Below are positions 30,930-63,542 of a DNA stretch of 64,000 bases, piece by piece. The translations under genes were made by a program, and so were the position numbers. The stretch's first letter is position 1. Each line of letters starts with the position of its first letter. The stretch is taken from contig JADLBL010000003.1 of the NCBI GenBank assembly GCA_020847735.1, positions 62,001 through 126,000 of the forward strand, read 5' to 3'. The DNA is from Candidatus Eisenbacteria bacterium (GTDB lineage Bacteria > Eisenbacteria > RBG-16-71-46). The notes beneath the pieces are model-generated. The model did no database searches. It worked only from the letters and a program-made list of their open reading frames with translations, and was not told the origin of the DNA.

Positions 30930-31069
30930 GCCTTGACGCCCCTGGAGGTGGATGGAATCCGGTGGGCGCGGGGCCGCAGGTCGGTCCGGCGCGCGAGAGC
31001 GGCGGGTATTATCGCCGAACGGGCCGGCCTTCGGGAAGCCCGCGAGACCCGCCCCCGCAGGAGTTGGCG

Positions 31070-43117: not shown

Positions 43118-43606
43118 TCACCCCGCTCCTGTCTCATGTCGAGCCTCGTACGCGCGGTACTGCAGCGCCTCCGCCAATCGCAACGGGCGCACACTCACCT
43201 CGGCGGCGAGATCCGCGATTGTCCGGGCCACTCGCATGGCGCGATGCACGGCTCGTGCGCTCATGCCGCCACGATCCACCGCATCCGCGACGAGTTGGCG
43301 CCCAGTCGTGTCGAGCGCGCAGTATTCGCGCAGCGTCGCATTCGGCAGCATCGCGTTGAGGTATCCACGCGCGAACTGGCACGCACGCGCCGCGAGCACG
43401 CGCTCGCGTACGACGGCACTCGTCTCTCCGAGAGATGCCCGCAGCAGCTCGTCGGATGTCAGCGCGGGTACCTCAATCTGAATATCAATACGGTCTAATA
43501 TAGGACCACTGACGCGCGTCGAGTGACGCGCCATCTCATGGGGAGTGCACCTGCACCCCCGCTTGGGATGTCCCAGCCACCCGCACGCGCAAGGTTGCGT
43601 TGCCAA
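43118..43606 (-). pseudogene. comM: 3' end of comM, copy B (diverged)
   Basis: About 160 residues, same extent as copy A and breaking at the same codons (ATQPCACGWLGHPKRGC...). Over the last ~128 residues it is about 75% identical to copy A by hand alignment, so it is not a recent duplicate but comes from another lineage. Upstream of the ATQ codons the DNA becomes the serine recombinase gene. The frame is intact to its stop, so it could complete a comM gene if joined to a 5' part. Confidence 0.82.
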
Positions 43607-45096
43607 TTGCCGGCTACTTCGGCGGGACCGGGAAAGTAGGCGAGGTCGATCTCGACCTCGCTCCTTCCGACCCGGACGGCATCGACCACGGCCTCGATGA
43701 TAGCCCTTTTCTCACTGGCACTTAGAGCCGGCCAGCGCTCGTAGAGATCCTTCGCTCCTGAGAGGATCTCGTCCCTTGCCAAGAACTGGACCTTGGCGAA
43801 ATCCACCTCGCCCTGGAGCCGGGGGAGTTCCTCGTCGAGCTGCTTGAGGCGCTCCTCGAGTGGCTTGTAGGTCCGGCCGAAGCCGTCGGGGGAGATCTGG
43901 TCGTCGATGTAGAGCCGGTAGACCTTGGCCATCTCGGTCCGGACCTTCTCGGCCTCGGCCTCCAAAACGCCGAGGTGCTCCTCCTTGGCCCGGATCTCCT
44001 CGTCGGCTGCCCCGACGTAGGCGGCCACGTCCTCAGGCGAGAGGAAGAAGCTGCGGAGCTGCTCGTGGAAGACCGCCTCGAGGTCCTCGGGGGTGATCTT
44101 GTTCCGGCAGGCCCGGCAGATGTACTTGACCGTCCGGTAGCTGGCGTCGGCGTACATCCGCTGGCCGCAGTGGCAGGCGACTACCCCGGCGAAGAGGTGG
44201 GCGGGCTTCTTGGCTGGCGGCTTGGCTGTGACCCGGCGGTCGTCGAGGATGGCGTTGCACTGACTCCAGAGGCCCTCTGGGACGATCGGCTCCACGGGAG
44301 AGAGGACCCAGTCGCTCTCCGGCTTGAGGACCCAGTGCTTCTTCTCGCCAAGGGACTTGGTGTAGTTGGCACGGCGCAGGCCCTTGGCCGTCGAATCCCG
44401 GATCAGGCGCTCGACGGTCGTATCCGACCACATGCCACCCGTGCGCGTACGGTACCCGCGTTCGTTGAGCAACCGGGCCACGGCCTTCTTGCGCTTGTGC
44501 TCGAGGAAGAGCTCGTAGAGGAGCTTCCGGACCGGCGCCTCGGCCGGATCGGGAATGAGCTGCTTGTCCTTCCACTGGTAGCCGTAGGGGGCGGCCCCGC
44601 CGGTGGACTTGCCAAGCTTGGCCCGGATAGGCACCGAGGCCGCGACGCGCTCAGCGATCTCCTCCCGCTCCCACTGCGCCATGGCCGCGATCATGGTGTA
44701 GAAGAGCCGGCCGGCCGGGGTGGTGGTGTCGATGGACTCCTGCAGGGAGATCAAGTCCGCGTCATGGTCGCGGAAGTAGTCGGCGAAGTCGAGCAGCTCG
44801 CGGGTGTTCCGAGCCAGCCGGGCAAGCTTGGAGAAGATGAGCCCCGTGATGTGGCCGGTGGCCACGTGGCCCATCATCTTCTTCGCCTCGGAGTGCTCGC
44901 GGACGCTCTTCCCGCTTACGCCCTCGAGGTGGTAGACCTCACGAACCTTCCAGCCCTTGCTCTCCGCGTAGCCGCGGGCGCGTTTCTCGTGGTGCTCGGG
45001 GCTCTCGCCTCGCGCCTGGTCCTCGGTCGAGACACGGATCCAGATGCCGACGGGCTTGGACCGTTCCACTCCTTCAACGACTCGCAGCTTCCTCAT
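43495..45096 (-). CDS. Large serine recombinase (integrase), reading through the att site
   Basis: 533 residues. Resolvase catalytic domain with nucleophile S23 in RVSTEDQ, then LARLARNTRELLDFADYF and a long helix. A 'recombinase' domain follows (APYGYQW, LLNERGYRTRTGGMWS), a zinc ribbon (CHCGQRM...CRAC), and a coiled coil (~365-445). This is the normal layout of site-specific phage/ICE integrases. The frame does not stop at the element edge: after about residue 497 (PGPAEVAGNWQRNLA) it passes through the shared att block and reads ~35 residues out of frame through comM copy B. Its C-terminus is therefore host-supplied and its native end unclear. Confidence 0.88.
   Translation of the reverse strand: MRKLRVVEGVERSKPVGIWIRVSTEDQARGESPEHHEKRARGYAESKGWKVREVYHLEGVSGKSVREHSEAKKMMGHVATGHITGLIFSKLARLARNTRELLDFADYFRDHDADLISLQESIDTTTPAGRLFYTMIAAMAQWEREEIAERVAASVPIRAKLGKSTGGAAPYGYQWKDKQLIPDPAEAPVRKLLYELFLEHKRKKAVARLLNERGYRTRTGGMWSDTTVERLIRDSTAKGLRRANYTKSLGEKKHWVLKPESDWVLSPVEPIVPEGLWSQCNAILDDRRVTAKPPAKKPAHLFAGVVACHCGQRMYADASYRTVKYICRACRNKITPEDLEAVFHEQLRSFFLSPEDVAAYVGAADEEIRAKEEHLGVLEAEAEKVRTEMAKVYRLYIDDQISPDGFGRTYKPLEERLKQLDEELPRLQGEVDFAKVQFLARDEILSGAKDLYERWPALSASEKRAIIEAVVDAVRVGRSEVEIDLAYFPGPAEVAGNWQRNLARAGGWDIPSGGAGALPMRWRVTRRASVVLY
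43558..43606. repeat. att-like repeat, copy B (element/comM junction)
   Basis: CCCGCTTGGGATGTCCCAGCCA from 43558 and GTTGCGTTGCC at 43594-43604 repeat copy A at 37371-37417 with identical spacing. It lies inside the 3' end of the serine recombinase, the usual position of an attachment site beside its integrase gene. Confidence 0.6.
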
Positions 45097-46166: not shown

Positions 46167-46187
46167 CTGCCCTCGCCTCACGAGCAT

Positions 46188-49100
46188 TCAGGACTTGCTC
46201 TTCCGCATTCGCTTCACTGCTTGCGCAACCACTGCCGAGACCACGCCGTGTCGCTCGGTCTTCGTCGCGCTCGTTGTCGGCTTGATACGGACCTTCACCT
46301 TGTAACCGCGCACCGTCTGCTCGCTCACGTGGGTCTCGGCGTCGGCGGCATCGAGCACGTCGAACAGGTTCTCGGGCGTGCAGTAGGCCACCTTGCCCAG
46401 CTGCTCCTCGGTCAGGATCGCGGCCGATTCGCGCTTCATGGTTTTCAGCGTCTTCTGATCCGCCGCGACATGCAGCACTCGGCCGAAGCCGGCGGCGAGG
46501 CATTTCTGAAGATTCTCCACTTCGTGGTCGGAGCTGGTGGTGACGCCGATCTCGACCGCTACCCCCTTCTCACCCTTCCGCAGCGCCACGTCGACGTTGC
46601 CGAGGCCGTCGAGGACGCTCTCCTCGACCGTCGAGCGCCAGTCGTGAGTGTCGGCCCACCGACAGATGAGGGACTGCAGGTACTTGTGCTGCTTGCCGCC
46701 GCGTCCAGGGCTCGACGCCGGCGTCGGGATCTCGACGGCAGAAGGTGGCAGAAGTGGTGCCGGGACCGCGGGGGATTCGGCCCCGGCACGTTCCCGTCGC
46801 GGGGGCGACGGTGGCGTCGGTGGTTCGACGCGCTTCGATTCTAGCTCCTGGGCAGCGCCCGAGCGAGCCAGCAGCGCCTCGATCTCCGCCCGCGGCCGGC
46901 CGTAGCGCTCACGTGTCCGGCCCACGATGTGGGCCCGGGTTTCCGTGCTGGCCGCCTCATCAACGAGCGGCAGCATGGTGGTGGCGAGGTTGAAGTCGAA
47001 CTCGGAGCGCTCGATCCGGGCGATGGCCTGCCCAGTGGAGAGGGACTGTAAGTCGCGCGCATCGAAGTGCTGAAACCCGTCGGCCAACGTCCGGGCGTCC
47101 TGATCCCCGACCCGGAAGCAGATCCGAGCGTAGGGATTGGACAGCACTGAGTTCAGGACGTCCACGCTGCGGCTTTGAATCTGCCGCAGGTCCTGGTGCG
47201 CCAGCACCAACCCGAGCCGGTACTTCCGCGCGCCAGAGAGGATCGACTCCATCGACGGAGTGACGAAGTTGTGGAACTCATCGACGTAGAGGTAGAACGG
47301 CCGGCGCTCGGCTGCGGCCTGTTCCTGCCGGCTCATGGCGAGCTGTTGCAGCTTGGAGACGATGAGTGTGCCAAGGAGGTAGGCGTTTTCTTCGCCGATC
47401 GCGCCTTGAGAGAGCCGCGCCAGCAGTACCTGCCCGCCGTCCATGATCCGCCGCAAGTCCAGCCGGCTGTCCTGCTGGGCCACCATGTAGCGGATGGTCT
47501 TGGGCCGCAGGAAGATGTCGAGGCGCGTGAGGAGCGGTGCCTGCGGCTTGCCCGAGAGGAGCGGGAACTCCTTCTGCCAGTAGTAGACGACCTCCGAATC
47601 GTTGACCGTCTTGAGGAACTCTCGGCGGAAGTCAGCCTCGACGAGAAACCGGCGCAGGTCCACCAGCGTCCCGCCGCGGCCACTCTCGAGGAAGGCGAGG
47701 ATCGCGTTCCCGAGGACCGACGTCATTTGGTCGCCCCAGCTCGTCGAGAGCCGGCGGAAGACTGACACGAGATCCGATGCCAGGAGCGTTCGCTCGAGCT
47801 CGGAGTGCGCCTGCAGGATGTTGAAACCGACCGGGTACTCACCATCGGAAGGATCGAGCAGCACGACGTCGTCTCGCCTACTCGCAGGCAGCCGGCGCAC
47901 AACCTCGTCTATGAGGTCACCGTGCGGATCGAGGACCGCCAGGCCTTCCCCGCGATCGAGGCTCTGGAGGATCAAGGAGAGCAAGAGCGTGGACTTGCCC
48001 GTGCCCGAGGCCCCGACGACGTACAGGTGCCGCGAGCGTTGATCGTCGCTCAAGGCCACCGGCGTGCTCTTGCCCGCGTGCATGTTCGTGCCGAGCACGT
48101 AGTCGTGATTGGTCGCGACGGCCGGGGCCATGCGCGTCTTGCCGGACTCGCGGACGAGCTTCTCCAGCCGCACCGTGGCCGAAGGCGGGTGAACGAGCGA
48201 GACAAGCTCGGCGCAGCTAAGCAGCATTCCGCTGCGGCGGGTCAGGCGGCGGAGCAGATCCTGTTCGTGGAACTCGTCGGGGTAGTCGTCGTTGGCGAGC
48301 GGGACCAGCCGATTTGCCGGCGGGTTAGTGAGCGCGTTCAAGGCCCAGCCCACCGAGCGGGCAAGAAGCATCGCGCGCTGAGGGTCGGGAGATCGCACAC
48401 CAACGCGAACGACGCAGGCGTAGAGCGGTCGAGAGATCTTCTCGCGGGCGAGCGCCGTCACCTCGGGTGCATCGAGGAAGAACGGGCTGCCGCCTTCGTC
48501 GAGGACGGCCCGCAGGATGCTCTCCGCCCACGGCTCGCGCGTCGGCTGGAAGAGCACCTGCAGTACCGCGGTCTCGCCCGGTTCGAGTTCGGACATCGCT
48601 GCTCCGATGCCCGTCAGAGGATCGACGGTGAAGCGCCGCAGCGTCCGGAGCGGCAGCATGAACTCCTCGGAGAGCCCGAACTCCACGACGACGGAGTGGC
48701 CGCCTTGCTGCTGCCAGGCTGTTTCGAGGGAGCCGTCGGCGGTGGTCAAGACGCTCGCGGGAAAGAACCCCCTCACCTGCTGCTGGACGAGTGAGCGGTC
48801 CGCTTCAGCGCAGACGAGCTGAACCGCGATCGCCTCGGCCGTGCCAATGACTTCGAATGTGACCGAGCGCCGCAGGTGCGGCAATGCGAGCAGGAACTGT
48901 TCGACTTCCTCGGGCGAGACGTCGTGGTCCGGCGGCAGCGACCAGCGCAGTTCCGTCAGCGGCTCGCTGTCATCGATCGCCCCGGGCTCGGAGTCCTCCT
49001 CGTCAAGGACGGCATGCTCCGACTCATCCGCGGGCGATGGCCCCGCGCCAAGGATTCGGTCGGTCAGCCGGCTCCAGAGCGTCGAGACGCGGCCATCGTC

Positions 49101-49289
49101 AAGGTCCGAAGGCGACCGCGACACGTGGTGGAAGCGGAACGGCGCGAAGGGCGGTTCCAGTTCCACAGGCGAGTCCCATACCCGCCAACCACGGCCGCGC
49201 CGCTCCCAGGTGTAGAACTGCTCGGTCAGTCGCTCAATCGACGAGGCCAGCACGCAGACCTCACGAGGGATTGACGGCGGAAGCGCCAC
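46188..49289 (-). CDS. VirD4/HerA-type DNA translocase ATPase with C-terminal restriction-nuclease-like domain
   Basis: 1033 residues. N-terminal ~400 residues are a variable domain with beta strands and no obvious membrane helix. The ATPase has Walker A GASGTGKS (426-433), VLDPHGDLIDEVVRRLP, a TraG-like middle (SWGDQMTSVLGNAILAF), Walker B FYLYVDEF (665-672) and ARKYRLGLVLAHQ. This is the conjugative coupling-protein-like branch of HerA/FtsK ATPases. After a Pro-rich linker (820-865), residues ~868-960 look like a PD-(D/E)xK fold (E890, GNVDVAL with D900, VAVEIGVTT with E913). It probably pumps and cuts element DNA. No relaxase or T4SS pilus genes are in the window. Overlaps the membrane partner upstream by 29 bases. 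Confidence 0.82.
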   Translation of the reverse strand: MALPPSIPREVCVLASSIERLTEQFYTWERRGRGWRVWDSPVELEPPFAPFRFHHVSRSPSDLDDGRVSTLWSRLTDRILGAGPSPADESEHAVLDEEDSEPGAIDDSEPLTELRWSLPPDHDVSPEEVEQFLLALPHLRRSVTFEVIGTAEAIAVQLVCAEADRSLVQQQVRGFFPASVLTTADGSLETAWQQQGGHSVVVEFGLSEEFMLPLRTLRRFTVDPLTGIGAAMSELEPGETAVLQVLFQPTREPWAESILRAVLDEGGSPFFLDAPEVTALAREKISRPLYACVVRVGVRSPDPQRAMLLARSVGWALNALTNPPANRLVPLANDDYPDEFHEQDLLRRLTRRSGMLLSCAELVSLVHPPSATVRLEKLVRESGKTRMAPAVATNHDYVLGTNMHAGKSTPVALSDDQRSRHLYVVGASGTGKSTLLLSLILQSLDRGEGLAVLDPHGDLIDEVVRRLPASRRDDVVLLDPSDGEYPVGFNILQAHSELERTLLASDLVSVFRRLSTSWGDQMTSVLGNAILAFLESGRGGTLVDLRRFLVEADFRREFLKTVNDSEVVYYWQKEFPLLSGKPQAPLLTRLDIFLRPKTIRYMVAQQDSRLDLRRIMDGGQVLLARLSQGAIGEENAYLLGTLIVSKLQQLAMSRQEQAAAERRPFYLYVDEFHNFVTPSMESILSGARKYRLGLVLAHQDLRQIQSRSVDVLNSVLSNPYARICFRVGDQDARTLADGFQHFDARDLQSLSTGQAIARIERSEFDFNLATTMLPLVDEAASTETRAHIVGRTRERYGRPRAEIEALLARSGAAQELESKRVEPPTPPSPPRRERAGAESPAVPAPLLPPSAVEIPTPASSPGRGGKQHKYLQSLICRWADTHDWRSTVEESVLDGLGNVDVALRKGEKGVAVEIGVTTSSDHEVENLQKCLAAGFGRVLHVAADQKTLKTMKRESAAILTEEQLGKVAYCTPENLFDVLDAADAETHVSEQTVRGYKVKVRIKPTTSATKTERHGVVSAVVAQAVKRMRKSKS

Positions 49290-54913: not shown

Positions 54914-55184
54914 CGGACTCCAGAATCAATGCTCCTGACCATCGACTTCTCTACTTGCGGCGCTCCGCGAGGTTATCACTCCGGACTCTGGTTCGTCACC
55001 TCATTCGCGACTTGGGACACATGGGCGCAGTGCTGGCTGTGACGCTTTTCTCGTGCTAGGCGATGAGCAGCAACAAGTGGCTGCAGGAAGTGCTGTAGCT
55101 CCGTCTAATCCGCTCGTGCTGACATTCAGTTGTCTTGATGGCGCCCTGAACGCATCGCCCCGGTGAGCCAGCGCGGGATAGAAG
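54914..55184. other. Gap left of the DUF932 gene
   Basis: No coding frame with family resemblance. It marks the change from cargo genes to the compact minus-strand element block. Confidence 0.4.
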
Positions 55185-55212
55185 ACGGGCCGTCCATCTC
55201 TGAACGGCCCGT
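55185..55212 (-). terminator. Probable terminator after the DUF932 gene
   Basis: ACGGGCCGT (55185-55193) and ACGGCCCGT (55204-55212) form a perfect 9-bp stem with a 10-base loop, eleven bases past the DUF932 stop. On the minus strand TCTTCTAT follows, a weak T-rich tract. It would end the long leftward transcript of the element. Confidence 0.55.
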
Positions 55213-55222
55213 GGTGAAGGTA

Positions 55223-55951
55223 CTAGTTGAGGGAGAGTCCCTCTCGAAACGCCTTGGTGAGCCGCAGAGTTCCGTCCATCTGCTGCCGGGGCTGCCGCTG
55301 GCCGATGACGGCCGTGAAGGCATTGAAGAGCGCCCAGGCGGAGTGCGGCACGAACTCCGGGTTGTCGAGGTCGTCGAAGTGCTCGATGACCTTGGGCAGC
55401 TGCGAGGCCGGCAGGGCGCCGCTCCGGATCGCCAGGATCATCAGGTGGTGCGCGAGCGCCATCTTGAGCGTCAGCCGCTTCATCTGCTCGATCTCTGCCG
55501 CCAGGCGCCCCTTCATCGCGGACACGCTCATCAGCATGTCGTAGACGAGGCTGGGCAGGTCCCGGAAGACGTGGGCGGTGTGCTTGCGAGAGACCTTCGT
55601 CTCGCCGTGGAAGGCCAGGTTGTCGCAGACGAACACCCGGCTGCCGGCCACGAGCTGAACGCTCAGGGAGCGGTCGTACGAACTGCGCAGGCCGATGGCC
55701 AGGCCCCAGTCGGCGGTGTGGCCATTGCGACAGGTGAGGACGCCGAACATCTGGTTGCCATCGCGAGCGAGCGCGTAGCGCTCGTCCTGAACGGCGAGGC
55801 CGAAGCGCGGCAGGTGCAGGTGGATCTCCTCGACGAGCCGCCCGTAGGAGACCGGGACGTAGGAGTCGGTGGACTCGGGGACTTCGACGGAGGCGAGGTC
55901 GGCGAGGCTGGCGGACCAGCCACCGCGATGCAACATGAGGGTGGAGCGCAT
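55223..55951 (-). CDS. DUF932 family protein
   Basis: 242 residues. Matches the DUF932 (phage/plasmid LGT-type) family: YVPVSYGRLVEEIHLHLPRFG, DGNQMFGVLTCRNG, GLRSSYDRSLSVQLVAGSRVFVCDNLAF. Members are found on plasmids, ICEs and phages beside RadC-like and recombination genes; function is unknown. AAGGAAG lies upstream of the ATG. Last gene of the leftward element block, followed by a terminator hairpin. Confidence 0.85.
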   Translation of the reverse strand: MRSTLMLHRGGWSASLADLASVEVPESTDSYVPVSYGRLVEEIHLHLPRFGLAVQDERYALARDGNQMFGVLTCRNGHTADWGLAIGLRSSYDRSLSVQLVAGSRVFVCDNLAFHGETKVSRKHTAHVFRDLPSLVYDMLMSVSAMKGRLAAEIEQMKRLTLKMALAHHLMILAIRSGALPASQLPKVIEHFDDLDNPEFVPHSAWALFNAFTAVIGQRQPRQQMDGTLRLTKAFREGLSLN

Positions 55952-55981
55952 CGTGTGACTTCCTTCTCGGGGGCTGGCGAT

Positions 55982-56404
55982 TTAGAGCAGCTGCCGGGCA
56001 CGGAAGGAGACCACGCCCCGGCTAGCAACGATGACATGATCGAGCACGCCGATGCCGAGGAGTTCTCCAACCTCGACGAGCCGCTTGGTGATCGCCAGAT
56101 CTTCTTCCGAGGGCTCGGGATCGCCGGAAGGGTGATTATGGACCAACACGACAGAGGCGGCTGAGGCAAGGATCGCCGGCTTGAACACCTCACGCGGATG
56201 GACGATCGAGGCATTCAAGGACCCGATGCTGACCGTCTCCACCGCATCGACTTCATGGCGGGCATTGAGCAGGACCACCAGGAAATGCTCGCGGGCGTGC
56301 TTCGTCAGTCGGCGCCCGAAGAGCTTGGTGACGTCCTCGGGACCACGGATCACGTGCGGCTGCTTGCCGCGGTACTTCCGTTTGGTGAGTTCACGGACGT
56401 ACAC
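55982..56404 (-). CDS. Truncated RadC-family protein (JAB domain only), element copy
   Basis: 140 residues: a short basic start (MYVRELTKRKYRGK) and a complete JAB domain with HNHPSGDPEPSEEDLAI. It lacks the N-terminal helix-hairpin-helix domain of chromosomal RadC at 31070. The shared 103 residues are about 84% identical by hand count, unusually close for a mobile-element gene. Stand-alone RadC-like proteins are typical of ICEs and plasmids. GTG start with GGAG eight bases before; the leader shares ACCCGCCCCT-(n)-CAGGAGT with the gene at 58061. Confidence 0.88.
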   Translation of the reverse strand: MYVRELTKRKYRGKQPHVIRGPEDVTKLFGRRLTKHAREHFLVVLLNARHEVDAVETVSIGSLNASIVHPREVFKPAILASAASVVLVHNHPSGDPEPSEEDLAITKRLVEVGELLGIGVLDHVIVASRGVVSFRARQLL

Positions 56405-56572
56405 GGGGACAACTCCTGCAGGGGCGGGTAGAAAGAAGGGCCCCGAGCGAACACGCGCGGAGCCCCGATGAGACTGGAAGGAACGAAACTAGGAAGGTGC
56501 GACGAGCCGCGGACGTTTCAGCATCAGCTGCCGTCCGTGGCCCCCGATAGCACGCGACGACCTCCGAGAGGC

Positions 56573-57415
56573 CTACGCGCCCGCGATCTCGCCGACACCT
56601 TCCCTTTCAGCCAGTTGGATCAACTGCTCGTCGGCCTGCATCGGCCAGGTACCGCGCCACTGCTGGCAGTGAGCGAAGTACTCGCACTCGGTGCAGCGCC
56701 ACGACGGGTTCGGGAAGAAGTGCTCGGTCTCGATCGCGAGGGACACCTCGCGGATCAGCCGGGCGCTCCAAGACAGATCCTCGAGCGACCGGGTGGTCTC
56801 ATGCCGCTCGAGCCGGGGTTTCGTGGTCTTGAGGAGCATGTCCAGCCGGAGGCGCGGGATCTTCCCCTTGAACAGCAGGAAAGCCAGCGCGTAGGCGGAA
56901 AGCTGCAGGTGCCGTTCCAATCCGCCGGATTCGAGCGTCCGGCCGGCGGTCTTGAGGTCCACGAGCACATCACCTTCCTCGATGAGGTCGATGATGCCTC
57001 GCAGACGCACCTCGAGGATTTCGCCGGTTTCGGGATCGGCCAGCTCGAGCTCGAACGGCTGCTCGACCGCGACCGGCTTCGTCCCGTTGGCGGACTCCAC
57101 GTAGAGCTGGAGCATGGCCCGCCCCTTCTCCGCGAGCCCATCGCGGGACTCTCGTTCGGAGAAGACAAGGGGCTCCACGTTCTGCGCGTACCAGTCCGCG
57201 TCGAAGACCTGCAGCACGTCGGGAAGCTCCGGCGATCGTCCGGCGAGCCGTTCCTTGTGGAACCACTCGACGGCCGCGTGGATCGACGTGCCGAAAGCCA
57301 TGCCGGCGACGCGCCAGGGGCGCGGCACCTTGTCCACGTACTGGAAGCGGTACTTGAGCGGACAGCCGAGGTAGGCGTTGACCTGGCTAATGCTGATGAC
57401 GCGTGGCTGAACCAT
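56573..57415 (-). CDS. RecB/Cas4-like PD-(D/E)xK exonuclease
   Basis: 280 residues. N-terminal ISISQVNAYLGCPLKYRFQY (C18 as first Fe-S ligand candidate), GTSIHAAVEWFH (H46), catalytic core GIIDLIEEGDVLVDLKT (D...D-x-K), QLSAYALAF, and a C-terminal CTECEYFAHC Cys cluster. This is the layout of 4Fe-4S RecB-family 5'-end-resecting nucleases. It overlaps the candidate annealing protein upstream by 29 bases, giving an exonuclease-annealase pair as in phage recombination modules. Confidence 0.88.
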   Translation of the reverse strand: MVQPRVISISQVNAYLGCPLKYRFQYVDKVPRPWRVAGMAFGTSIHAAVEWFHKERLAGRSPELPDVLQVFDADWYAQNVEPLVFSERESRDGLAEKGRAMLQLYVESANGTKPVAVEQPFELELADPETGEILEVRLRGIIDLIEEGDVLVDLKTAGRTLESGGLERHLQLSAYALAFLLFKGKIPRLRLDMLLKTTKPRLERHETTRSLEDLSWSARLIREVSLAIETEHFFPNPSWRCTECEYFAHCQQWRGTWPMQADEQLIQLAEREGVGEIAGA

Positions 57416-58061
57416 TGCCGCCGCCGTTTCCGGGGGCGGAGGTCTGGAGCAGCTGGTCGATCATCTGCATAGCGGCGGTCTTCGTGATCTCGGACAGCGC
57501 CGAGACCTCGAAGATCTCCTTGATCCGGTTCTCCGCGGCGTCCTTGTGGAAGCCCTGCCCCGCCATGATGCGGAACAGGTAGCGACGCTGGCCTTCGGTC
57601 ATCGGCTCGGAAGAGCCGTTGCCGCTGGATCGCGGAGCGGAGCCGTTGCCACGCGGGCGCGTGTACGTGCGGCTCGTGCCGTTCGGACGGGTAGCACCCG
57701 GTCCGGGGCTCGGACGAGGGACGCGGCTGGCGCCGTCCAACTCCTCGAGGGAGACAACGCCGACATTGACGGCGTCACGGAGGGCACGGGCCTTGGCCCG
57801 GGTCTCGGCCACACGGATCAGGTGCGGGGCGAGGAAGTCGTCGACGTTGCCGGGGTCGGCATCGCCTAAGGCTTCGAAGTGTCCGCGCTCGGTCTCGACC
57901 GAGGCCTTCACGATCGCGAGGCGTCCGTTGTCCTCACTCGGCTGGAGCACCAGCTCGGTGGCGATGGACTTCAGGCCCTCGTCGTGCGCGAGCTTGAGCA
58001 GCTCGGCGTAGGCAACGGTCTCCCGAGCATCGGGATGGGTGGTGGGCTGACGGGCCTCCAT
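57387..58061 (-). CDS. Candidate single-strand annealing/ssDNA-binding recombination protein
   Basis: 224 residues. The N-terminal half carries a beta hairpin (GRLAIVKASVETERGHFEALGDA) and the helix HLIRVAETRAKARALRDAVNVG, a pattern seen in Rad52/ERF-type annealing proteins. A Gly/Pro/Arg-rich linker (~115-150) follows, and a C-terminal helical domain (MTEGQRRYLFRIMAGQGF, EITKTAAMQMIDQLL) of the kind appended to many phage annealases. Assignment is by pattern and by its overlap with the nuclease gene; a different ssDNA-binding role is possible. Leader AGGAGTGCC lies before the ATG. Confidence 0.6.
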   Translation of the reverse strand: MEARQPTTHPDARETVAYAELLKLAHDEGLKSIATELVLQPSEDNGRLAIVKASVETERGHFEALGDADPGNVDDFLAPHLIRVAETRAKARALRDAVNVGVVSLEELDGASRVPRPSPGPGATRPNGTSRTYTRPRGNGSAPRSSGNGSSEPMTEGQRRYLFRIMAGQGFHKDAAENRIKEIFEVSALSEITKTAAMQMIDQLLQTSAPGNGGGNGSATRHQH

Positions 58062-58220
58062 GAGGCACTCCTGACAAGGGGCGGGTGGAACAACAACGGC
58101 ACCAAGAGTACTGCGTCAGGAAGCGTAGCTCCGCCCGGTTACCATTCGTAGAGAGGCGGACGTGACGGCGTCGCCTCGTCACAGTGGACAACTGCTCCGA
58201 CCGCCTCGCTCAGCGCGGGA

Positions 58221-59486
58221 TCAGTAGCGCGCCAAGATCTCCTGCCGCTTGCGCTCGTACTCGGCGTCCGTGATCAGCCCCTGATCGTGAGCCCGCTTGA
58301 GATCCAGCAGTTGCTGCTCCAGCGACTTCCCACTCGGCGGTGCGGCGGCAGAATCGGCACGCGCCACAGTCGGCGCCGCAACAACAGCGCTTTCCTTCAA
58401 GAGCTCCGGACGTACTTGTCCGAGCGCCTTCATGACGCGGTAAGACTGCTGGTGATCGGTCAGCGTCTCGACATCGCGCCGGCCCGCGAGATAGTCCACC
58501 AGCGCGGTGACCGTGGCGACTCTGGTCTGGTCCAGCGGGTGGTCGGCCAGAAGCACGTTGCGCTGCTCGGATGCGACGTCCGCGTTGTACCACTCGACAA
58601 CTTGGTTGTAGTGCAGGCGCCTCTTCTCGGCGTCCGCGCACATGGCGTTGACCTTGTTCGCGTTCTCCTGCGTCTGGTAGGAGCGCGAGCTGTTGAAAAG
58701 GTTCTTGTTCTGCATGCAGTTGGCAAGGGCCTGATCGTAGGCAGCCTTGGCCTCGTCAAGCGTCCGCTGACGTTCCTGACGATGTTGGTCACGTTGGCGG
58801 ATCATGCCGGTGAAGAAGTTGAGCCCGCGCATGGGATCGAAGCCCGCCTGCCGGGCGATGCACACGCCGATGGCGTCGGCTTCCTCTTCGTCGCCCCGGC
58901 TGTACGTGCTGCTGATGCTCGTCGAGATCGTGGAGAGCGCGTCCTTGTTCTTCGGGGACAACAAAGCGGCGAGATTGGCCAGGCCCGCCCAAGTGGTCGA
59001 GGCATCGTCCTGGCGGCGCTCGAGGTGCTTGAGCATGGAGTGCCCGGTCTCGTGTGCGAGGATGAGGCCGAGTTCGTCATCGCTTGGGTGCAAGTCCAGC
59101 AGGCCGGTCCAGACATAGATGTACTTCCCACCGACGACGAACGCGTTCACCACCTTCGGGTCACTGTCCAAGACCCGGACGACCCACTGATTTGGATCCT
59201 GCCCGGCCGCCTGAAGCACGGTGTCGGTGATGCGCTTGACGCGCGCATAGCGCTCATCCGTCACGAGGTAGATCTGGTGGCTCCAGGACTGCCCACTGGA
59301 GAGGATGTCATCGTCGTACTTGCGCGCCGCGGCAAGCGCCTGCGGCGAGATCGGCGATTGCAGCGCCGCGATAATCGCTTCAAGGCTATGCTGGTCGGCT
59401 GCGGCAGACTTCTCGGCCGAGGTGACGGCCACGATCGCCACGGCGAACAACCCGCAGCGCATCCACGCTGAACGTGCAATCGACAT
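58221..59486 (-). CDS. Secreted M48-type zinc metalloprotease with C-terminal SHOCT domain
   Basis: 421 residues from ATG 59486 (AAGGAG eight bases before). Signal peptide (WMRCGLFAVAIVAVTSAEKSAAA). M48 peptidase core: NAFVVGGKYIYVWTGLLDL, zinc motif HETGH (145-149), third ligand region RGDEEEADAIGV. A Gln/Arg-rich helical linker follows. The final ~35 residues are a SHOCT domain (LEQQLLDLKRAHDQGLITDAEYERKRQEIL). M48 proteases act in envelope quality control (BepA/LoiP type). It is unusual inside a recombination block of a mobile element; perhaps it remodels the envelope for DNA transfer. Confidence 0.85.
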   Translation of the reverse strand: MSIARSAWMRCGLFAVAIVAVTSAEKSAAADQHSLEAIIAALQSPISPQALAAARKYDDDILSSGQSWSHQIYLVTDERYARVKRITDTVLQAAGQDPNQWVVRVLDSDPKVVNAFVVGGKYIYVWTGLLDLHPSDDELGLILAHETGHSMLKHLERRQDDASTTWAGLANLAALLSPKNKDALSTISTSISSTYSRGDEEEADAIGVCIARQAGFDPMRGLNFFTGMIRQRDQHRQERQRTLDEAKAAYDQALANCMQNKNLFNSSRSYQTQENANKVNAMCADAEKRRLHYNQVVEWYNADVASEQRNVLLADHPLDQTRVATVTALVDYLAGRRDVETLTDHQQSYRVMKALGQVRPELLKESAVVAAPTVARADSAAAPPSGKSLEQQLLDLKRAHDQGLITDAEYERKRQEILARY

Positions 59487-59610
59487 GCTTGGCACTCCTT
59501 GGGGAACCACAATCGGGTGGGCGGTGCGGACGCAAATCCGCCGTACCTCTTGTGTTCGACCAGAATACAAGCGTCCTTGAGACCCCCAGCCCACTGACGC
59601 CGCTCCCAGC

Positions 59611-60123
59611 TTACATCTCTGTGGCGGCAACCGCGATCGCCAGCGCGTCGAACATGTGCAGCCAGTACTTGTGCTTGGGCCGCAGGCCGAGTGCTGGCCG
59701 CGCTGGGCGTTTCGGGACGAGTTGGCGCAAGTGGCCGAAGCCGTGAGCAACGAGATGCTCGGCCACGTCGATCTTCGTGGCCCGGGGATTCCCGGTGACA
59801 CGCTGACGAATAGCCACCGGCGAGAGTTCGACGACGTCGATGCCCAGTTCCTCCGATCGGTCACGCAGCTCATCGGCCAAGACGTTCAGCAGGTGGGCCC
59901 GATGGCCGGGCAAGTCAAAGGGTTTCTCGATCGCCACGACGTCGGGATCGTGCTCCTCGATCAAGTTCAGCACGTGCTGCTTGGCCAGCCCGATCGCTTC
60001 GTGATGGCGCTTGCCATTCGGCAGCGTGCGCACGCCGAACCAGACGAGCACGTGAGCCCGCAGGACAACGAGCCCCATCTCGCGGGTTCCGGGATCGATG
60101 CCGATGACGGTCTTGGACTGCAT
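59611..60123 (-). CDS. RuvC-like Holliday-junction resolvase, copy 1
   Basis: 170 residues from ATG 60123. RNase-H-fold acid residues: IGIDPGTREMGL (D), VVAIEKPF (E), and HMFDALAIAVAA (D). The open frame upstream has no homology, so this Met is chosen; no SD precedes it. Resolvases of this type process branched DNA in phages and ICEs. Followed upstream by a second, diverged resolvase. Confidence 0.82.
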   Translation of the reverse strand: MQSKTVIGIDPGTREMGLVVLRAHVLVWFGVRTLPNGKRHHEAIGLAKQHVLNLIEEHDPDVVAIEKPFDLPGHRAHLLNVLADELRDRSEELGIDVVELSPVAIRQRVTGNPRATKIDVAEHLVAHGFGHLRQLVPKRPARPALGLRPKHKYWLHMFDALAIAVAATEM

Positions 60124-60244
60124 GAAGGTGTTGGGTTGATGGGTAAATCGAATGGGTGCCCTCCCGAGGACCGCCCGCCGTCTCCCCCTTGCGAGGAAGC
60201 GGCCGGGAGCGGTGGCGCCGGGGCAAGCCTGACGCGCCAGTTCT

Positions 60245-60772
60245 TCAGCCGGAGTGCCGGCTGCGGGAGGGCGGGTGCGCGACCACCTGGTGGTGCCACG
60301 CGAGGCCAACGGCATCGAGGTCGTTGAGCCAGTAGCGTTCCTTCCAGCGCCGGTCCTGCGTCAGCAGGAGCCGAAGTTGCGGGAAGCGATGCGCGACGAT
60401 GACGGCCGCTTCGGCCTTCGTGGCCTTGCCATTCCCGGCGACCGTCTGCCGTACGGCTTGCGGCGAATACGTGTGCAGCGGGATGCGCCAGGCTTTGGCG
60501 ATGCGCCGCGCGGCGAGCGTGATGCGGTGGAGGTTGTTGAGCCAGGGCACGGGATGCCGGTACGTCTTCTCCACGACGAGTGCCCCGGGACGGTGCCGAT
60601 TGACGAGTCGGCCCATCCCCAAGGTTGCTTCGCGAAGTCGCTGGTCCTTGGGCAGTGAACGAAGCGGGATGACGCCGTGCTCGAGGAGACGTCGGCCGGC
60701 GAGGATGGCGTATCCGAGTTCCCGGGTGCCGGGATCGATGGCGAGGATGGGGCGGCTAGGATTTCTGGGCAT
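60245..60772 (-). CDS. RuvC-like Holliday-junction resolvase, copy 2
   Basis: 175 residues. Motifs ILAIDPGTRELGYAIL (D), ALVVEKTY (E), and LNDLDAVGLAWHH (D). It is only distantly similar to copy 1 but has the same layout, including a T-x-x-G-N/K-A-T-K-x-x-A segment in both (VTGNPRATK, VAGNGKATK). The start overlaps the stop of the winged-helix gene by 17 bases. Two resolvase-type genes in a row suggest either different substrates or a heteromeric enzyme. Confidence 0.82.
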   Translation of the reverse strand: MPRNPSRPILAIDPGTRELGYAILAGRRLLEHGVIPLRSLPKDQRLREATLGMGRLVNRHRPGALVVEKTYRHPVPWLNNLHRITLAARRIAKAWRIPLHTYSPQAVRQTVAGNGKATKAEAAVIVAHRFPQLRLLLTQDRRWKERYWLNDLDAVGLAWHHQVVAHPPSRSRHSG

Positions 60773-61283
60773 GGGGTTTGGACTTGAGGAGGTAAAGGAA
60801 GAGCGCGGTACGCGAGCGGCGAATCTGCTCGTCGGGCGGGGCCAGTGCCCCGGCCAACGCCCGCCGGATGACTGGATCGGGGTGACGTCGCAGTGCCTCC
60901 TCGAATGCGTCGGTGCTCAACTTGTCCTTGAGCATCCGCTGCAAGCGAGCGACCGTGAAATACCGCTCGGCGGACGATTCGATCGGCTCCGGGACGAAGC
61001 CTTTCTTGATCGTGATCCGGACGAAGCCGTTCAGGCGCGCGGCCTCCACGTAGCCGGCCTTGCGGAGGTGGCCGAGCCAGGAACGGACGGTGCCTTCGGG
61101 CAGCCCCATCTCCCGCCCGATCACCGCGGGCTCGACCTCGATGGTGTCAGCGCCGGCCGGGAGCCGGGCCAACAGCTCGAGGTAGAGCCAGAGTCCAGCG
61201 CGCATGTGTCGCAGGTGGTAGGCCCGCGGATGCTCGAGGATGCGGCGATCGAGCTGTAGGGTGATGGTTGAAGTGGAGGACAT
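60756..61283 (-). CDS. Winged-helix DNA-binding protein, paralogue 1
   Basis: 175 residues from ATG 61283. A winged-helix domain at ~28-95 (GLWLYLELLARLPAG, REMGLPEGTVRSWLGHLRKAGYV) and a C-terminal helical module ending RRSRTALFLYLLKSKP. The fold and position at the head of a leftward operon suit a replication initiator or primosome-type loader, but no specific family is recognised. Shares its C-terminal R-T-A-L-F-x-x-L-L pattern with the next gene. Confidence 0.65.
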   Translation of the reverse strand: MSSTSTITLQLDRRILEHPRAYHLRHMRAGLWLYLELLARLPAGADTIEVEPAVIGREMGLPEGTVRSWLGHLRKAGYVEAARLNGFVRITIKKGFVPEPIESSAERYFTVARLQRMLKDKLSTDAFEEALRRHPDPVIRRALAGALAPPDEQIRRSRTALFLYLLKSKPHAQKS

Positions 61284-61296
61284 GCAGCGCGAGGGG

Positions 61297-61839
61297 TTAG
61301 TTGGCTGAAGGTGGCTCCTTGGCGATCCGCGGCAGGAGAAACCGGAACAGGGCCGTGCGGTTCTTGCGCACTGAGTGCATCCGGCGGACACGATCCAGCG
61401 CCTTGCGAATCACGGCCGGCGCGTAGTACTCGACGGCACCACGGAACGTCGTCGGGTCGGTCTCGCCGAGCGTGGTGAGGATCTCCCGCAGGAGCGCTTC
61501 CTGGTCCGCCGGCGGCCTATAGCTCTCTTTCATCAACGGCTTTGATTGTGAAAGAGAGCTTTGAGAGCTATAGGCAGGATTCGCCGGAGCCCCGGATTTC
61601 GCGGGCTCCTTCGGTGCTTCGTGCTTCCTGCCAGACCATGATCCGGGGAGCTTGGCAACCAGGAATGGAAGGGGCGAGAGGATGTCGATCGCGCCGTGCC
61701 TCGTCGCTTCCTCGAGCAGCTCCCGCAAGAGGGCGAGGTCGATCCCGAGCTCGTCGAGCATGGTTGCTTCGTTGGCCAGGACGAGCCCGCGGGCGTTGGC
61801 CCGAGCCGTGAGCAAAGCGATCAACTGCGGCTCCGTCAT
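61297..61839 (-). CDS. Helical protein related at its C-terminus to the neighbouring winged-helix protein, paralogue 2
   Basis: 180 residues from ATG 61839, which overlaps the XRE gene stop (ATGA). An N-terminal helical part contains LDELGIDLALLRELLEEATRHGAIDIL (HTH-like); a Lys/Pro/Ser linker follows. The C-terminal module (LLREILTTLGET, VIRKALDRVRR, NRTALFRFLLPRI) repeats the architecture of paralogue 1 (ALRRHPDPVIRRALAG, SRTALFLYLL). Probably DNA-binding; role unknown. Confidence 0.6.
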   Translation of the reverse strand: MTEPQLIALLTARANARGLVLANEATMLDELGIDLALLRELLEEATRHGAIDILSPLPFLVAKLPGSWSGRKHEAPKEPAKSGAPANPAYSSQSSLSQSKPLMKESYRPPADQEALLREILTTLGETDPTTFRGAVEYYAPAVIRKALDRVRRMHSVRKNRTALFRFLLPRIAKEPPSAN

Positions 61840-62120
61840 GCGGCATGTGGCGTTGCCGCGTGCCGGGGGAGCCCGGCTGCCAGGCTGACGTCCGGATAGA
61901 GGGTGTCCGGCAGGACGCCGAGCTCTCGCGCCATGACCAGCAAGCGCGGGACGTTCGGCAGCCGCAGCCCACGTTCCCACAGCGAGACCAGGCTACGGTG
62001 GAGTTCGAGCTTGGCGGCCAGCGCCTGCTGGCTCAAGCCACGCTGAATCCGGCAGCGCCGAATGGCGTTCGGGAACCTCGGAGTGTGACGCGAAGGCCGC
62101 GGGGTGAACTGGATGGGCAT
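61836..62120 (-). CDS. XRE-family transcriptional regulator
   Basis: 94 residues from ATG 62120. Helix-turn-helix IQRGLSQQALAAKLELHRSLVSLWERGLRLP followed by a dimer-type helix. First gene of the leftward operon, so it probably autoregulates the block from the divergent intergenic region to its right. An open frame extends 21 codons further but shows no homology. Confidence 0.85.
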   Translation of the reverse strand: MPIQFTPRPSRHTPRFPNAIRRCRIQRGLSQQALAAKLELHRSLVSLWERGLRLPNVPRLLVMARELGVLPDTLYPDVSLAAGLPRHAATPHAA

Positions 62121-62589
62121 AGGGTGAAGCGTAGCCGGCGACGTGTCGCCAGCGTAGGGAGGGCGAGGCGCGTCCCACCGCACCTGGCTGTGGATGACGC
62201 GCGACCTCTGGAACTCATTCTACCGAGCCGAAGAAAAACCGAACAGAGGGGGTGACGCGACACCCTGTGCGCAAGCTTGGGGATAACTGCGCCCGCATCC
62301 CATGTCACGACCCGCGTCGCAGTACGCTGCCATTCGCAATGATCTGCAGAGATACCTCATCGACGTAGCCTACCGTCCACTCACTACCCAGTGCAGGACG
62401 GCGGATTCCCGGCGATCCGCCACTCCTGTGGACAGCCTCGTTCGGCCCGTGGACGAAGGGCGACGACCGTCCGTATGCTCCGACCGAGTAGCTCGCGGCT
62501 CACCCCGCCGGCCTGCGAGAGAAAGTGAGGCCGCGCGGCGCTTCGCAGCCGCGAGCGTCCGGCCACTTACCTCGCCACAGGAGCCCGTC
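62121..62589. promoter_or_regulatory. Divergent control region with DnaA-box-like sites
   Basis: 469 bases between the leftward operon and the rightward genes, without a real gene. Three 9-mers resemble DnaA boxes (consensus TGTGGATAA on this strand): TGTGGATGA (62189-62197), TGGGGATAA (62278-62286) and TGTGGACAG (62427-62435). GGCGGAT/ATCCGCC arms (62400-62406, 62415-62421) make a small palindrome, possibly the XRE operator. It may hold both promoters and an element replication origin. Confidence 0.45.
62400..62421. repeat. Small palindrome in the divergent control region
   Basis: GGCGGAT (62400-62406) and ATCCGCC (62415-62421) are exact inverted arms with an 8-base centre. The size suits an operator for the dimeric XRE regulator encoded next to it. 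Confidence 0.35.
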
Positions 62590-63171
62590 ATGCCCTTCCG
62601 TGAGCTCATGACCGACCGCGTCACGCTGGTCAAGAAGGATGGACGCCGAATCGAGAACATCCAGGCACTGATCTCATCGTCCACCATCTACATGGACGAC
62701 GCCAGCTTGCCAATCGAAGAAGACGACACCTTCGAGCGACCACTTCCGAACGGCTTGGTCGAGGTGTACGTGGTCACGGATCGAGGTTTCCATCGGGGAC
62801 TTCCAGGCGCGATCGCGGATCACTACCAGACGAAGGTCCGGAAGGAGCCGTCGCTTCGTCCACCGTCTGCGCCGGCGGTCTTCCACATCAGCGGCGACAA
62901 TGCGCGCGTCAACATCAACTCTGTCGATCAGTCCGCCAACGTCGTCAACACGACGCCTGAGGCGCTCTTTCGTGATCTCATTCGCGCGATTGAGCGTGGC
63001 GTCGCTGACGCGTCACAGAGGACGGACCTTGTCGAGCGAGTGAAGGCGCTTGAGGCTGCGCGAGGGACGCCGTCGTTTGTAGACCAGTACCAGGCCTTCA
63101 TCGCGAGCGCCGCCGCGCACATGACGCTCCTGTCTCCCTTCATCCCGGCACTCACCCAGCTTCTGAAGTAG
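62590..63171 (+). CDS. Cytoplasmic protein of unknown function
   Basis: 193 residues; GGAG six bases before ATG 62590. An N-terminal ~85-residue beta-rich domain (FRELMTDRVTLVKKDGRRIEN, EEDDTFERPLPNGLVEVYVV) is followed by FHISGDNARVNINSVDQSANVV, an 'I-x-G-x-N-x-R-V-N-I-N-S' segment that occurs in several defence-associated and regulator proteins. A helical C-terminus ends it. No enzyme motif. First rightward gene opposite the XRE operon. Confidence 0.7.
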   Translation: MPFRELMTDRVTLVKKDGRRIENIQALISSSTIYMDDASLPIEEDDTFERPLPNGLVEVYVVTDRGFHRGLPGAIADHYQTKVRKEPSLRPPSAPAVFHISGDNARVNINSVDQSANVVNTTPEALFRDLIRAIERGVADASQRTDLVERVKALEAARGTPSFVDQYQAFIASAAAHMTLLSPFIPALTQLLK

Positions 63172-63290
63172 CTTGCCGCTGTTTGTCCACGGAACACTGG
63201 GCGAGTCGTGCCTCCCACTCGCAGTGTTGCGGCCCAGTCGTCACGTCCACCCGGCTACGCAGGCGACCAGAAGTCGGGCATGCTGGGAGC

Positions 63291-63542
63291 ATGGCGCCTA
63301 ACTTCACCCCACCTCAACGCCACGGCAACTTCGCCTTTGGCCTGACGCCTGAAGCGGTTGGACGCTTCCGCGACATCATGCGCCGCGAGTGTGGCTTGGA
63401 GCTGACGCCCGAAGAGGCGTGGGCCCGCGCGATCGAGCTCCTCGCCCTGTTCCGCATGATGCTCGGGCCGTTGCCCGAGGATGCGCGCCCGGCGAGTTCG
63501 AGCATCCGCGCTCTTGACGGATCCCGCCGCCCGAGCAATTGA
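63291..63542 (+). CDS. Small helical protein upstream of the second recombinase
   Basis: 83 residues. Motif AVGRFRDIMRRECGLELTPEEAWARAIELLALFRMML has the look of a small helix-rich protein of the kind often placed next to serine recombinases. A weak GGAG lies close to the ATG. It ends 20 bases before the recombinase start. Confidence 0.6.
   Translation: MAPNFTPPQRHGNFAFGLTPEAVGRFRDIMRRECGLELTPEEAWARAIELLALFRMMLGPLPEDARPASSSIRALDGSRRPSN

What the first reader, a model, noticed from the sequence alone, without database searches (positions are those of the whole stretch)
59611..60772. Two diverged RuvC-like resolvases in tandem
Both keep the D-E-D acid set and a shared G-N/x-x-A-T-K segment but are otherwise very different. 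Neighbouring paralogues may form an asymmetric dimer that cuts one branched DNA form, perhaps at the element's replication origin or transfer intermediates.
Basis: partly seen in the sequence, partly recalled or inferred. Interest (0 to 1): 0.5.

Follow-up and report, generated by a model that had tools for sequence, protein, structure and literature searches.

The report
Paired mobile-element resolvases flanking nucleic-acid junction
A mobile element in a bacterial genome carries two sister genes for enzymes of the kind that cut four-way DNA junctions, and the short gap between them is itself predicted to fold into a four-armed junction that recurs in related elements.

Summary
In detail: two adjacent RuvC-family ORFs (A 60772-60245, B 60123-59611, minus strand). 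They are not "very different": 34% identity over 166 aa. Both fall in an element-type RuvC clade apart from host ruvC (100/100). The pairing is conserved: four A-B pairs in this genome and one in G040, none in the other 45 genomes of the class. Ten further adjacent pairs (C-S) occur outside the class, one of them in an IMG/VR contig. Zixibacteria carry S alone. Paired S keeps the active site (8 of 8); C lost carboxylates in 5 of 10. The window pair keeps both sites. New: the A-B gap (60158-60272) folds into a four-way junction with an invariant 9-bp closing stem, found in 5 of 5 A-B gaps (one with an extra small hairpin) and nowhere else in this genome. A structure model trained on three copies finds the two divergent ones. 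Ten of 18 Zixibacteria loci hold a 419-512-nt covarying structure after S. Heterodimer formation, and whether the junction acts as RNA or DNA, are untested.

The parts
60245..60772 (-). RuvC-family resolvase A (first of the pair), 175 aa; D13, E68, N150, D153; its start overlaps the end of the upstream gene by 17 nt
   Evidence: Pfam PF02075 4.9e-12; AlphaFold2 mean pLDDT 90.8; Foldseek to D. radiodurans RuvC 7xhj_A 1.5e-11; residues
60158..60272 (-). Conserved four-way-junction structure: 9-bp closing stem GCCCTCCCG/CGGGAGGGC and three arms; overlaps the last 28 nt of gene A and ends 34 nt before the start of B
   Evidence: Folds; covariation; in this genome only at the four A-B gaps; hold-out model; no Rfam match up to E 1
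59611..60123 (-). RuvC-family resolvase B (second of the pair), 170 aa; D10, E66, H156, D159
   Evidence: Pfam PF02075 5.8e-9; AlphaFold2 mean pLDDT 88.8; Foldseek to T. thermophilus RuvC 4ep5 6.3e-10; residues
60756..61391 (-). Winged-helix replication-like protein (weak match to DnaD-like helicase loader, phrog_186, 1.7e-4); a relative precedes the RuvC genes in several related elements
61297..61980 (-). Second conserved protein before the RuvC pair; no family match
61836..62183 (-). HTH_3 repressor-like protein heading the module
   Evidence: PF01381 1.2e-12; recurs in this place
58221..59486 (-). M48 peptidase with SHOCT domain, likely cargo: no match in the 18 other loci searched
57387..58061 (-). 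Conserved module protein of unknown function next to the exonuclease
   Evidence: phrog_22961 3.7e-6, unknown function; recurs
56573..57415 (-). PD-(D/E)XK exonuclease-like protein of the module
   Evidence: PF12705 2.2e-31; phrog_69 exonuclease 5.2e-23
55982..56404 (-). RadC-like JAB-domain protein of the module
   Evidence: PF04002 3.6e-43
55223..55951 (-). DUF932 protein of the module
   Evidence: PF06067 3e-8; recurs
46188..49289 (-). HerA/TraG-type DNA-translocase-like ATPase of the element
   Evidence: PF10412 3.4e-11; phrog_5156 2.2e-61; relative in the Scalindua locus L035 at 6e-294
43495..45096 (-). Large serine integrase of the element
   Evidence: PF00239 3.6e-30, PF07508 2.1e-19; phrog_95 integrase 1.8e-108

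Best explanation
A and B are paralogous RuvC-family branch resolvases belonging to the replication and recombination module of a serine-integrase mobile element. Shown here: RuvC fold (predicted) and active-site residues in both, an element-type clade distinct from host ruvC, side-by-side conservation of A with B, and a conserved four-way-junction structure in the gap. Inferred: they work as a matched pair, most likely a heterodimer, that nicks the two sides of branched DNA made when the element recombines or replicates with its own exonuclease. Inferred with less certainty: the gap acts as an RNA leader of gene B in which a four-armed fold imitates the enzyme's DNA substrate, so that free resolvase binds it and limits further synthesis of B.
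For: Fold and family. Clade separate from host ruvC, 100/100. G000, G040 and the eight cellular genomes also show one lone host-type ruvC each; G080 and G603 were not checked for it. Adjacency: 5 of 5 A-B pairs and ten C-S pairs. Relatives of the same neighbours recur around them. Asymmetry in C-S pairs: S keeps D, E and D in 8 of 8 intact cases; C lost all three in 3 of 10 and the first D in 2 more; F or Y three residues after the catalytic E is present in 7 of 8 S and in 0 of 10 C (3 have H). Junction: closing stem plus the three arms predicted in all five gaps; 7 of 36 pairs with changes on both sides against a shuffled mean of 2.6, reached by 2 of 500 shuffles; hold-out 49.1 and 37.9 bits against 15.8 for the best unrelated place, where a sequence-only model gives 17.2 and 11.1 bits. 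Sense-strand z-scores exceed antisense in the three sequences compared (window -2.84 and -2.49, G040 -4.75 and -3.52; C8 sense -2.71, antisense -2.48, over different lengths).
Against: No dimer model, no binding or cleavage data. A and B each keep D, E and the last D, so each could work as a homodimer. Lone S genes are common in Zixibacteria (17 places), and one lone C-type gene sits among the other module genes (L165), so pairing is not obligatory in the wider clade. The wedge argument is weakened by the lone S genes: 0 of 17 have F or Y at that position, though 17 of 17 have F one residue later. Where measured, C-S genes are too close for a comparable structure between them (at most 46 nt apart or overlapping in L032, L033, L035, L036, L037 and L052; coordinates). 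Single junction folds are only moderately better than shuffles (z -2.0 to -4.8; interior alone with the stem removed -1.6 to -2.6). Given the closing stem, 19-27 of 400 interior shuffles also give exactly three arms. G040 shows an extra two-pair hairpin at the junction and so fails the exact three-arm rule. The closing stem never varies, so it gives no covariation. Deep branching order of A, B, C and S is unresolved (five constrained AU tests, p 0.32-0.42). The GGAGG-like stretch near B lies far from its ATG for simple ribosome-site masking (read).
Confidence: 0.45

Rival explanations
1. Two independent homodimeric resolvases with different substrates (for example A for Holliday junctions, B for forks or flaps), kept together only because they share an operon.
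For: Both keep D, E and the last D; A has N and B has H at the variable active-site position in 5 of 5 elements, which fits specialisation. S occurs alone in Zixibacteria.
Against: First-position genes in C-S pairs lost active-site residues while the second did not, which two independent enzymes would not explain; but that holds for C, not for A.
Confidence: 0.3
2. The gap is a DNA site: when single-stranded or extruded it folds into a four-way junction that A and B cut, for example to resolve or start replication or transfer of the element.
For: Four-armed shape next to junction-cutting enzymes; invariant closing stem in 5 of 5; one copy per A-B pair and none elsewhere in this genome; fold nearly as stable on the other strand.
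Against: Imperfect arms with more G-U than A-C cells (8 against 3) lean to RNA, weakly and with a bias from the folding method; the C-S pairs measured have no room for such a site between their genes.
Confidence: 0.22
3. The structure is a plain attenuator, processing site or mRNA-stability element with no link to the enzymes.
For: It lies between genes on one strand, probably in an operon, and regulatory hairpins are common.
Against: No T-run follows it, so it is not an intrinsic terminator; no Rfam match up to E 1; a four-armed layout shared by elements whose A proteins are 48% identical is more than a simple attenuator needs.
Confidence: 0.2
4. A structured RNA partner guides the RuvC proteins to targets, in the manner of bridge RNA or omega RNA.
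For: RuvC-fold enzymes with neighbouring RNAs exist (IS110: passages of PMC11208160); a second, larger structure lies beside lone S in Zixibacteria.
Against: Pfam finds no IS110 domain or other domain in A or B; no guide-like variable loop is evident by eye; the C-S pairs measured have no such structure between their genes.
Confidence: 0.06

Closest known systems
Bacterial RuvC (PF02075), e.g. T. thermophilus RuvC 4ep4/4ld0
   Same: RNase H fold (predicted), D and E and final D, about 160-175 aa, detectable sequence similarity
   Different: Two diverged copies side by side; N (A) or H (B) where 13 of the 14 host-type rows have D and one has H (passages of PMC3834835, report D in most species and H in Deinococcus-Thermus); below NCBIfam equivalog cut-offs; the stretch between the K of the GNxxATK segment and the last D is longer than in the genome's own host RuvC
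Phage RuvC, lactococcal phage bIL67 (4ktw)
   Same: RuvC-fold resolvase carried by a mobile element (passages of PMC3864405)
   Different: Described there as a dimer of one protein; structure match weaker (5e-5 to 2e-4)
IS110 recombinase with bridge RNA
   Same: RuvC-like catalytic domain encoded next to a structured non-coding RNA (passages of PMC11208160)
   Different: A and B match neither PF01548 nor PF02371 at E up to 1, and sit in a larger element that has its own serine integrase
PHROG phrog_159 and phrog_1770 resolvases
   Same: A matches them at 1.3e-9 and 6.7e-9, B at 2.3e-12 and 5.6e-6
   Different: These are profile families; no call here examined whether their members come in pairs or carry a junction structure

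Membership tests
RuvC Holliday-junction resolvase family (PF02075) | Sequence profile above Pfam gathering score | tested here: met
   A 46.4 and B 36.4 bits against 22.2
RuvC Holliday-junction resolvase family (PF02075) | RNase H fold like solved RuvC | tested here: met
   Predicted models; TM-score by query length 0.62-0.73 to the twelve best-ranked chains, all bacterial RuvC
RuvC Holliday-junction resolvase family (PF02075) | D, E, (D or H), D active site | tested here: inconclusive
   B has D, E, H, D; A has D, E, N, D
RuvC Holliday-junction resolvase family (PF02075) | Dimer that symmetrically cuts Holliday junctions | not testable with these tools
   Only single chains could be modelled; no biochemistry
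Chromosomal RuvC equivalog (TIGR00228 / NF000711) | Equivalog score cut-off | tested here: not met
   A 39.6/39.8 and B 21.8/37.5 bits against 100.65/163
Chromosomal RuvC equivalog (TIGR00228 / NF000711) | Groups with host ruvC in a tree | tested here: not met
   53 element-type rows against 14 host-type rows, 100/100
IS110 recombinase with bridge RNA | DEDD_Tnp_IS110 plus Transposase_20 domains | tested here: not met
   Only RuvC (and for B a sub-threshold RuvX) in Pfam at E up to 1
Known Rfam RNA family (for the gap) | Covariance-model match | tested here: not met
   No match up to E 1 in window 55000-63500

The most novel reading that the evidence does not exclude
The RuvC pair recognises a four-way junction made of its own messenger RNA: a natural RNA imitation of a Holliday junction that lets a mobile element sense or limit its resolvase. 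The large covarying structure beside the lone RuvC of Zixibacteria would then be a second, independent case of RuvC enzymes partnered with a structured RNA.
Probability: 0.25. Interest if true: 0.85.

Novelty: new variant of a known kind. Interest (0 to 1): 0.6.

Why it matters
RuvC-type resolvases are usually treated as homodimers encoded by one gene (recalled; the two structure papers whose passages I saw, describe dimers of one protein). An element-type clade in which the gene is doubled, with one copy losing its active site in several genomes, would give a natural set of asymmetric resolvases for asking how the two nicks are coordinated. A junction-shaped structure lodged between two genes for junction-cutting enzymes is directly testable, as binding target, cut site or unrelated. 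The Zixibacteria structure is a strong new candidate RNA (or single-stranded DNA) family in its own right.

Tried and rejected
Guide-RNA or IS110 membership: rejected on domain content. Dispersed repeat (REP or MITE) for the gap structure: rejected, because the exact closing-stem pattern with spacing 85-115 occurs only at the four A-B gaps in the 3.66-Mb genome. tRNA or tmRNA: none in window 42000-64000 or in the nine loci scanned. Intrinsic terminator: no T-run. Ten IMG/VR contigs match the stem pattern; none of the ten stretches has a RuvC pair (L144 has a lone weak RuvC-like ORF) and their model scores are at most 25.7 bits, so I treat them as chance. A tighter pattern found none in viral contigs. 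Single ancient duplication against separate duplications: not resolved. Structure after S in C-S loci: no strongly folding window in L032, L035, L052 and L110. Strongly folding windows exist upstream in L032 and L035; by eye the two folds look like simple hairpins or coding sequence, and I did not pursue them. Loop-loop pairing between two arms of the junction (CTTGC with GCAAG) was noticed by eye; four of five have both, C8 only partly; not tested. Direction test by G-U against A-C cells (31 to 20 and 8 to 3): weak, and biased by the folding method. Mirror-tree correlation (A-B r 0.80, p 0.049; C-S r 0.49, p 0.008) is confounded by common descent. Phage collection: the same two unannotated contigs match S and B weakly. 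Plasmids: no match to A, three weak matches to S, two of them annotated ruvC. Rows dropped from the pair counts: the weak or partial hits L028 and L029, L102 and L144.

Full report
What is there. On the minus strand, window 60772-60245 (A, 175 aa) and 60123-59611 (B, 170 aa) are adjacent RuvC-family ORFs. Pfam RuvC matches both above its gathering score (46.4 and 36.4 bits against 22.2). PHROG resolvase families also match, while the NCBIfam RuvC equivalog cut-offs are far from met. AlphaFold2 models built from alignments of window and related proteins have mean pLDDT 90.8 (A) and 88.8 (B), and Foldseek ranks bacterial RuvC structures first (best E 1.5e-11 and 6.3e-10). The two are 34% identical over 166 aa, so 'otherwise very different' is too strong.

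The setting. Upstream of A lie an HTH_3 protein, a protein without family match and a winged-helix protein with a weak DnaD-like match. Downstream of B come an M48 peptidase, an unknown conserved protein, a PD-(D/E)XK exonuclease, RadC-JAB, DUF932 and, further on, a HerA/TraG-type ATPase, a TIR-like protein and a large serine integrase. Relatives of these genes recur around the RuvC genes of other loci, though not all in every locus; L036 and L038, for example, show only the RuvC genes. IMG/VR contig L052 has relatives of the HTH, winged-helix, exonuclease, translocase and integrase genes as well as C and S; the Scalindua locus L035 has the translocase at 6e-294.

Is the pairing more than chance? 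The window's own genome holds four A-B pairs (C3 twice, C8, C21) and one lone host-type ruvC. Across 47 genomes of the class, A-B occurs only there and in G040: five A genes, five with B adjacent; no other genome has more than one match at E 1e-12. Outside the class the same clade occurs as two adjacent genes that I call C (first) and S (second): ten pairs in nine genomes or records (G060, G061, G062, G063 twice, G064, G065, G067, G080, G603), two of them (G064, G065) with a broken S. Record titles name Nitrospira, Acidobacteriota, Scalindua and BRC1; two are only 'bacterium'. Against universality: 18 places in 13 of 132 genomes of the Zixibacteria group are single (17 S and one degenerate copy), and six further single element-type genes (L090, L104, L105, L111, L112, L115) plus three fragmentary cases (L080, L119, L121) exist. 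Eleven hits (L106-L109, L113, L114, L116-L118, L120, L122) have profile scores like host ruvC; I classed them so by score and did not put them in the tree. The phylum searches, at E 1e-20, covered 246, 14, 297, 295 and 132 genomes, three of them samples of larger groups. The weak or partial hits L028, L029, L102 and L144 were left out of these counts.

Tree and residues. In a tree of 67 rows, 53 element-type rows stand apart from 14 host-type rows with 100/100 support; A (100/99) and B (100/100) are each one clade; B next to paired S is favoured but not secured (82/74). Holding A+B, A+C, A+S, C+S or B+C together is not rejected (p-AU 0.32-0.42), so the age of the duplication is open. At the active site all five A have D, E, N, D and all five B have D, E, H, D. 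All eight intact paired S have D, E, N, D. Of ten C, three have N, K, R, E, one has R and one A for the first D, and five keep D, E and the last D. Among 17 lone S, one (L127) has A for the E. In most species the variable residue is D, and it is H in Deinococcus-Thermus (passages of PMC3834835). The residue three after the catalytic E, which I align with E. coli F69 (F69 is named in a figure-legend passage of PMC3864405; its wedge role is recalled), is F in 7 of 8 paired S, neither F nor Y in 10 of 10 C, Y (3) or H (2) in A and F (2), Y (2) or L (1) in B. It is neither F nor Y in all 17 lone S, but these have F one residue later, which none of the ten C has. C also diverges faster than S (mean difference 0.66 against 0.47 over eight pairs). 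This one-sided decay is the best evidence in the clade for an asymmetric partnership; the window's pair does not show it.

The gap between A and B. From stop to start the gap is 117-121 nt in the four own-genome elements and 173 nt in G040 (coordinates). Each holds the stem GCCCTCCCG ... CGGGAGGGC, 108-123 nt from end to end, enclosing three arms; its left end lies inside the end of gene A in the four own-genome copies. Minimum-energy folds made separately give the same four-way junction in the window, C3-left, C21 and C8 (z -2.0 to -2.9), and in G040 with one extra two-pair hairpin (z -4.75). With the closing stem held, interior shuffles give stem plus exactly three arms in 19-27 of 400, and the interior alone has z -1.6 to -2.6, so one such fold is not remarkable. 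What counts is the recurrence at matching positions in what I take as three diverged lineages: the window, C3 and C21 copies together, C8, and G040. On a sequence-only alignment of five, 88.3% of cells pair (shuffled mean 82.7, 0 of 500), and 7 of 36 pairs show changes on both sides (mean 2.6, 2 of 500); further pair types do not exceed the shuffles (14 against 12.9, 175 of 500). The structure counted was derived from the same alignment. The stem itself never varies, so it is no evidence of covariation. A covariance model trained on only the three similar copies scores C8 at 49.1 and G040 at 37.9 bits, next best unrelated place 15.8; a sequence-only model gives 17.2 and 11.1. The exact stem pattern occurs in the whole genome only at the four gaps. 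A model of all five finds those five places in 47 genomes plus one weak hit at E 0.6 in G020, with filters that can lose weak matches. Rfam has no match up to E 1 in window 55000-63500.

A larger structure beside the single RuvC. In ten of 18 Zixibacteria loci the stretch after S holds a non-coding region of 419-512 nt as extracted (four flanking bases on each side included), closed by an 11-18-bp stem. In L031 the next gene is Replic_Relax (PF13814, 4.1e-11). An alignment of the ten gives 45 of 87 pairs with changes on both sides (shuffles 26.6; slid controls 13-17) and a covariation score of 0.404 against 0.179, for a structure derived from that alignment; z is -14 to -17.5 in the three tested, and -13 to -17 on the other strand, stronger there in L128. 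A model of its 3' part finds ten places in 8 of 132 genomes, all the ones it was built from and all beside S. Seven loci (L124, L127, L130, L133, L134, L135, L138) show no perfect closing stem within 1,100 nt; in the six examined (all but L134) the next gene overlaps the end of S or starts within 1 nt of it. L136 is cut by the contig end. Rfam was searched for eight of the ten: nothing at gathering score in the region, one chance-level match inside it (mir-4436, E 0.89, in L125). RNA is likely but not shown.

How it most likely works. The proteins are branch resolvases of a mobile-element recombination and replication module; this rests on family, predicted fold, active site and neighbours. 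That A and B act together is inferred from adjacency and from the decay of C. That the gap is a substrate mimic in RNA is a hypothesis; a single-stranded DNA site, or an element unrelated to the enzymes, is not excluded. The confidences given to the best and rival readings concern different parts (proteins, gap) and are not exclusive, so they do not sum to one.

Literature. Nine searches of the open-access library listed, among the rows shown, no paper whose title or abstract start describes tandem RuvC paralogues or a junction-shaped RNA between resolvase genes; four of the nine showed only part of the matching papers. I saw passages only of PMC3834835, PMC3864405 and PMC11208160. This is no proof of absence, since most subscription papers are not held.

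Verdict. The pair is real and conserved, a new variant of a known enzyme family. The junction-shaped gap is the part worth following.

Noticed in passing
L031:5418-5929, L034:1468-1974, L123:2257-2710, L125:2236-2729, L126:2107-2526, L128:2319-2770, L129:806-1256, L131:801-1250, L132:845-1263, L137:775-1255: A 419-512-nt covarying structured non-coding region downstream of a lone RuvC-like gene in Zixibacteria loci; no Rfam match at gathering score in the eight of ten searched.
   Followed up: partly
window 45582-46187: TIR-like protein (ThsB_TIR, PF08937, 1.3e-15) next to the translocase and serine integrase of the element.
   Followed up: no
window 30842-31792: The 3' part of this radC gene is 73-78% identical in DNA to stretches of the three other elements of the genome (C3 left, C8, C21) that also align with the element's own RadC-like region.
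   Followed up: no
G000:C3 (126,963 bases): Two related elements lie near the two ends of one contig in opposite orientation, with A proteins 92% identical.
   Followed up: no
L162:8234-8755 (L112) and L163:8280-8828 (L134): Single element-type RuvC genes that themselves lost catalytic residues (A, A, D and D, T, S), with no partner found nearby.
   Followed up: no
L165: A locus with exonuclease, RadC, DUF932 and translocase relatives but only the C-type RuvC.
   Followed up: no
L031:5185-5325: A small Cys-rich ORF between S and the structured region, apparently conserved in the Zixibacteria loci (read by eye from the alignment; only a sub-threshold Pfam match).
   Followed up: no
L035:6640-6769 and L032:5720-5849: Windows with unusually strong predicted folding (z -6.7 and -6.2) upstream of C-S pairs.
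   Followed up: partly
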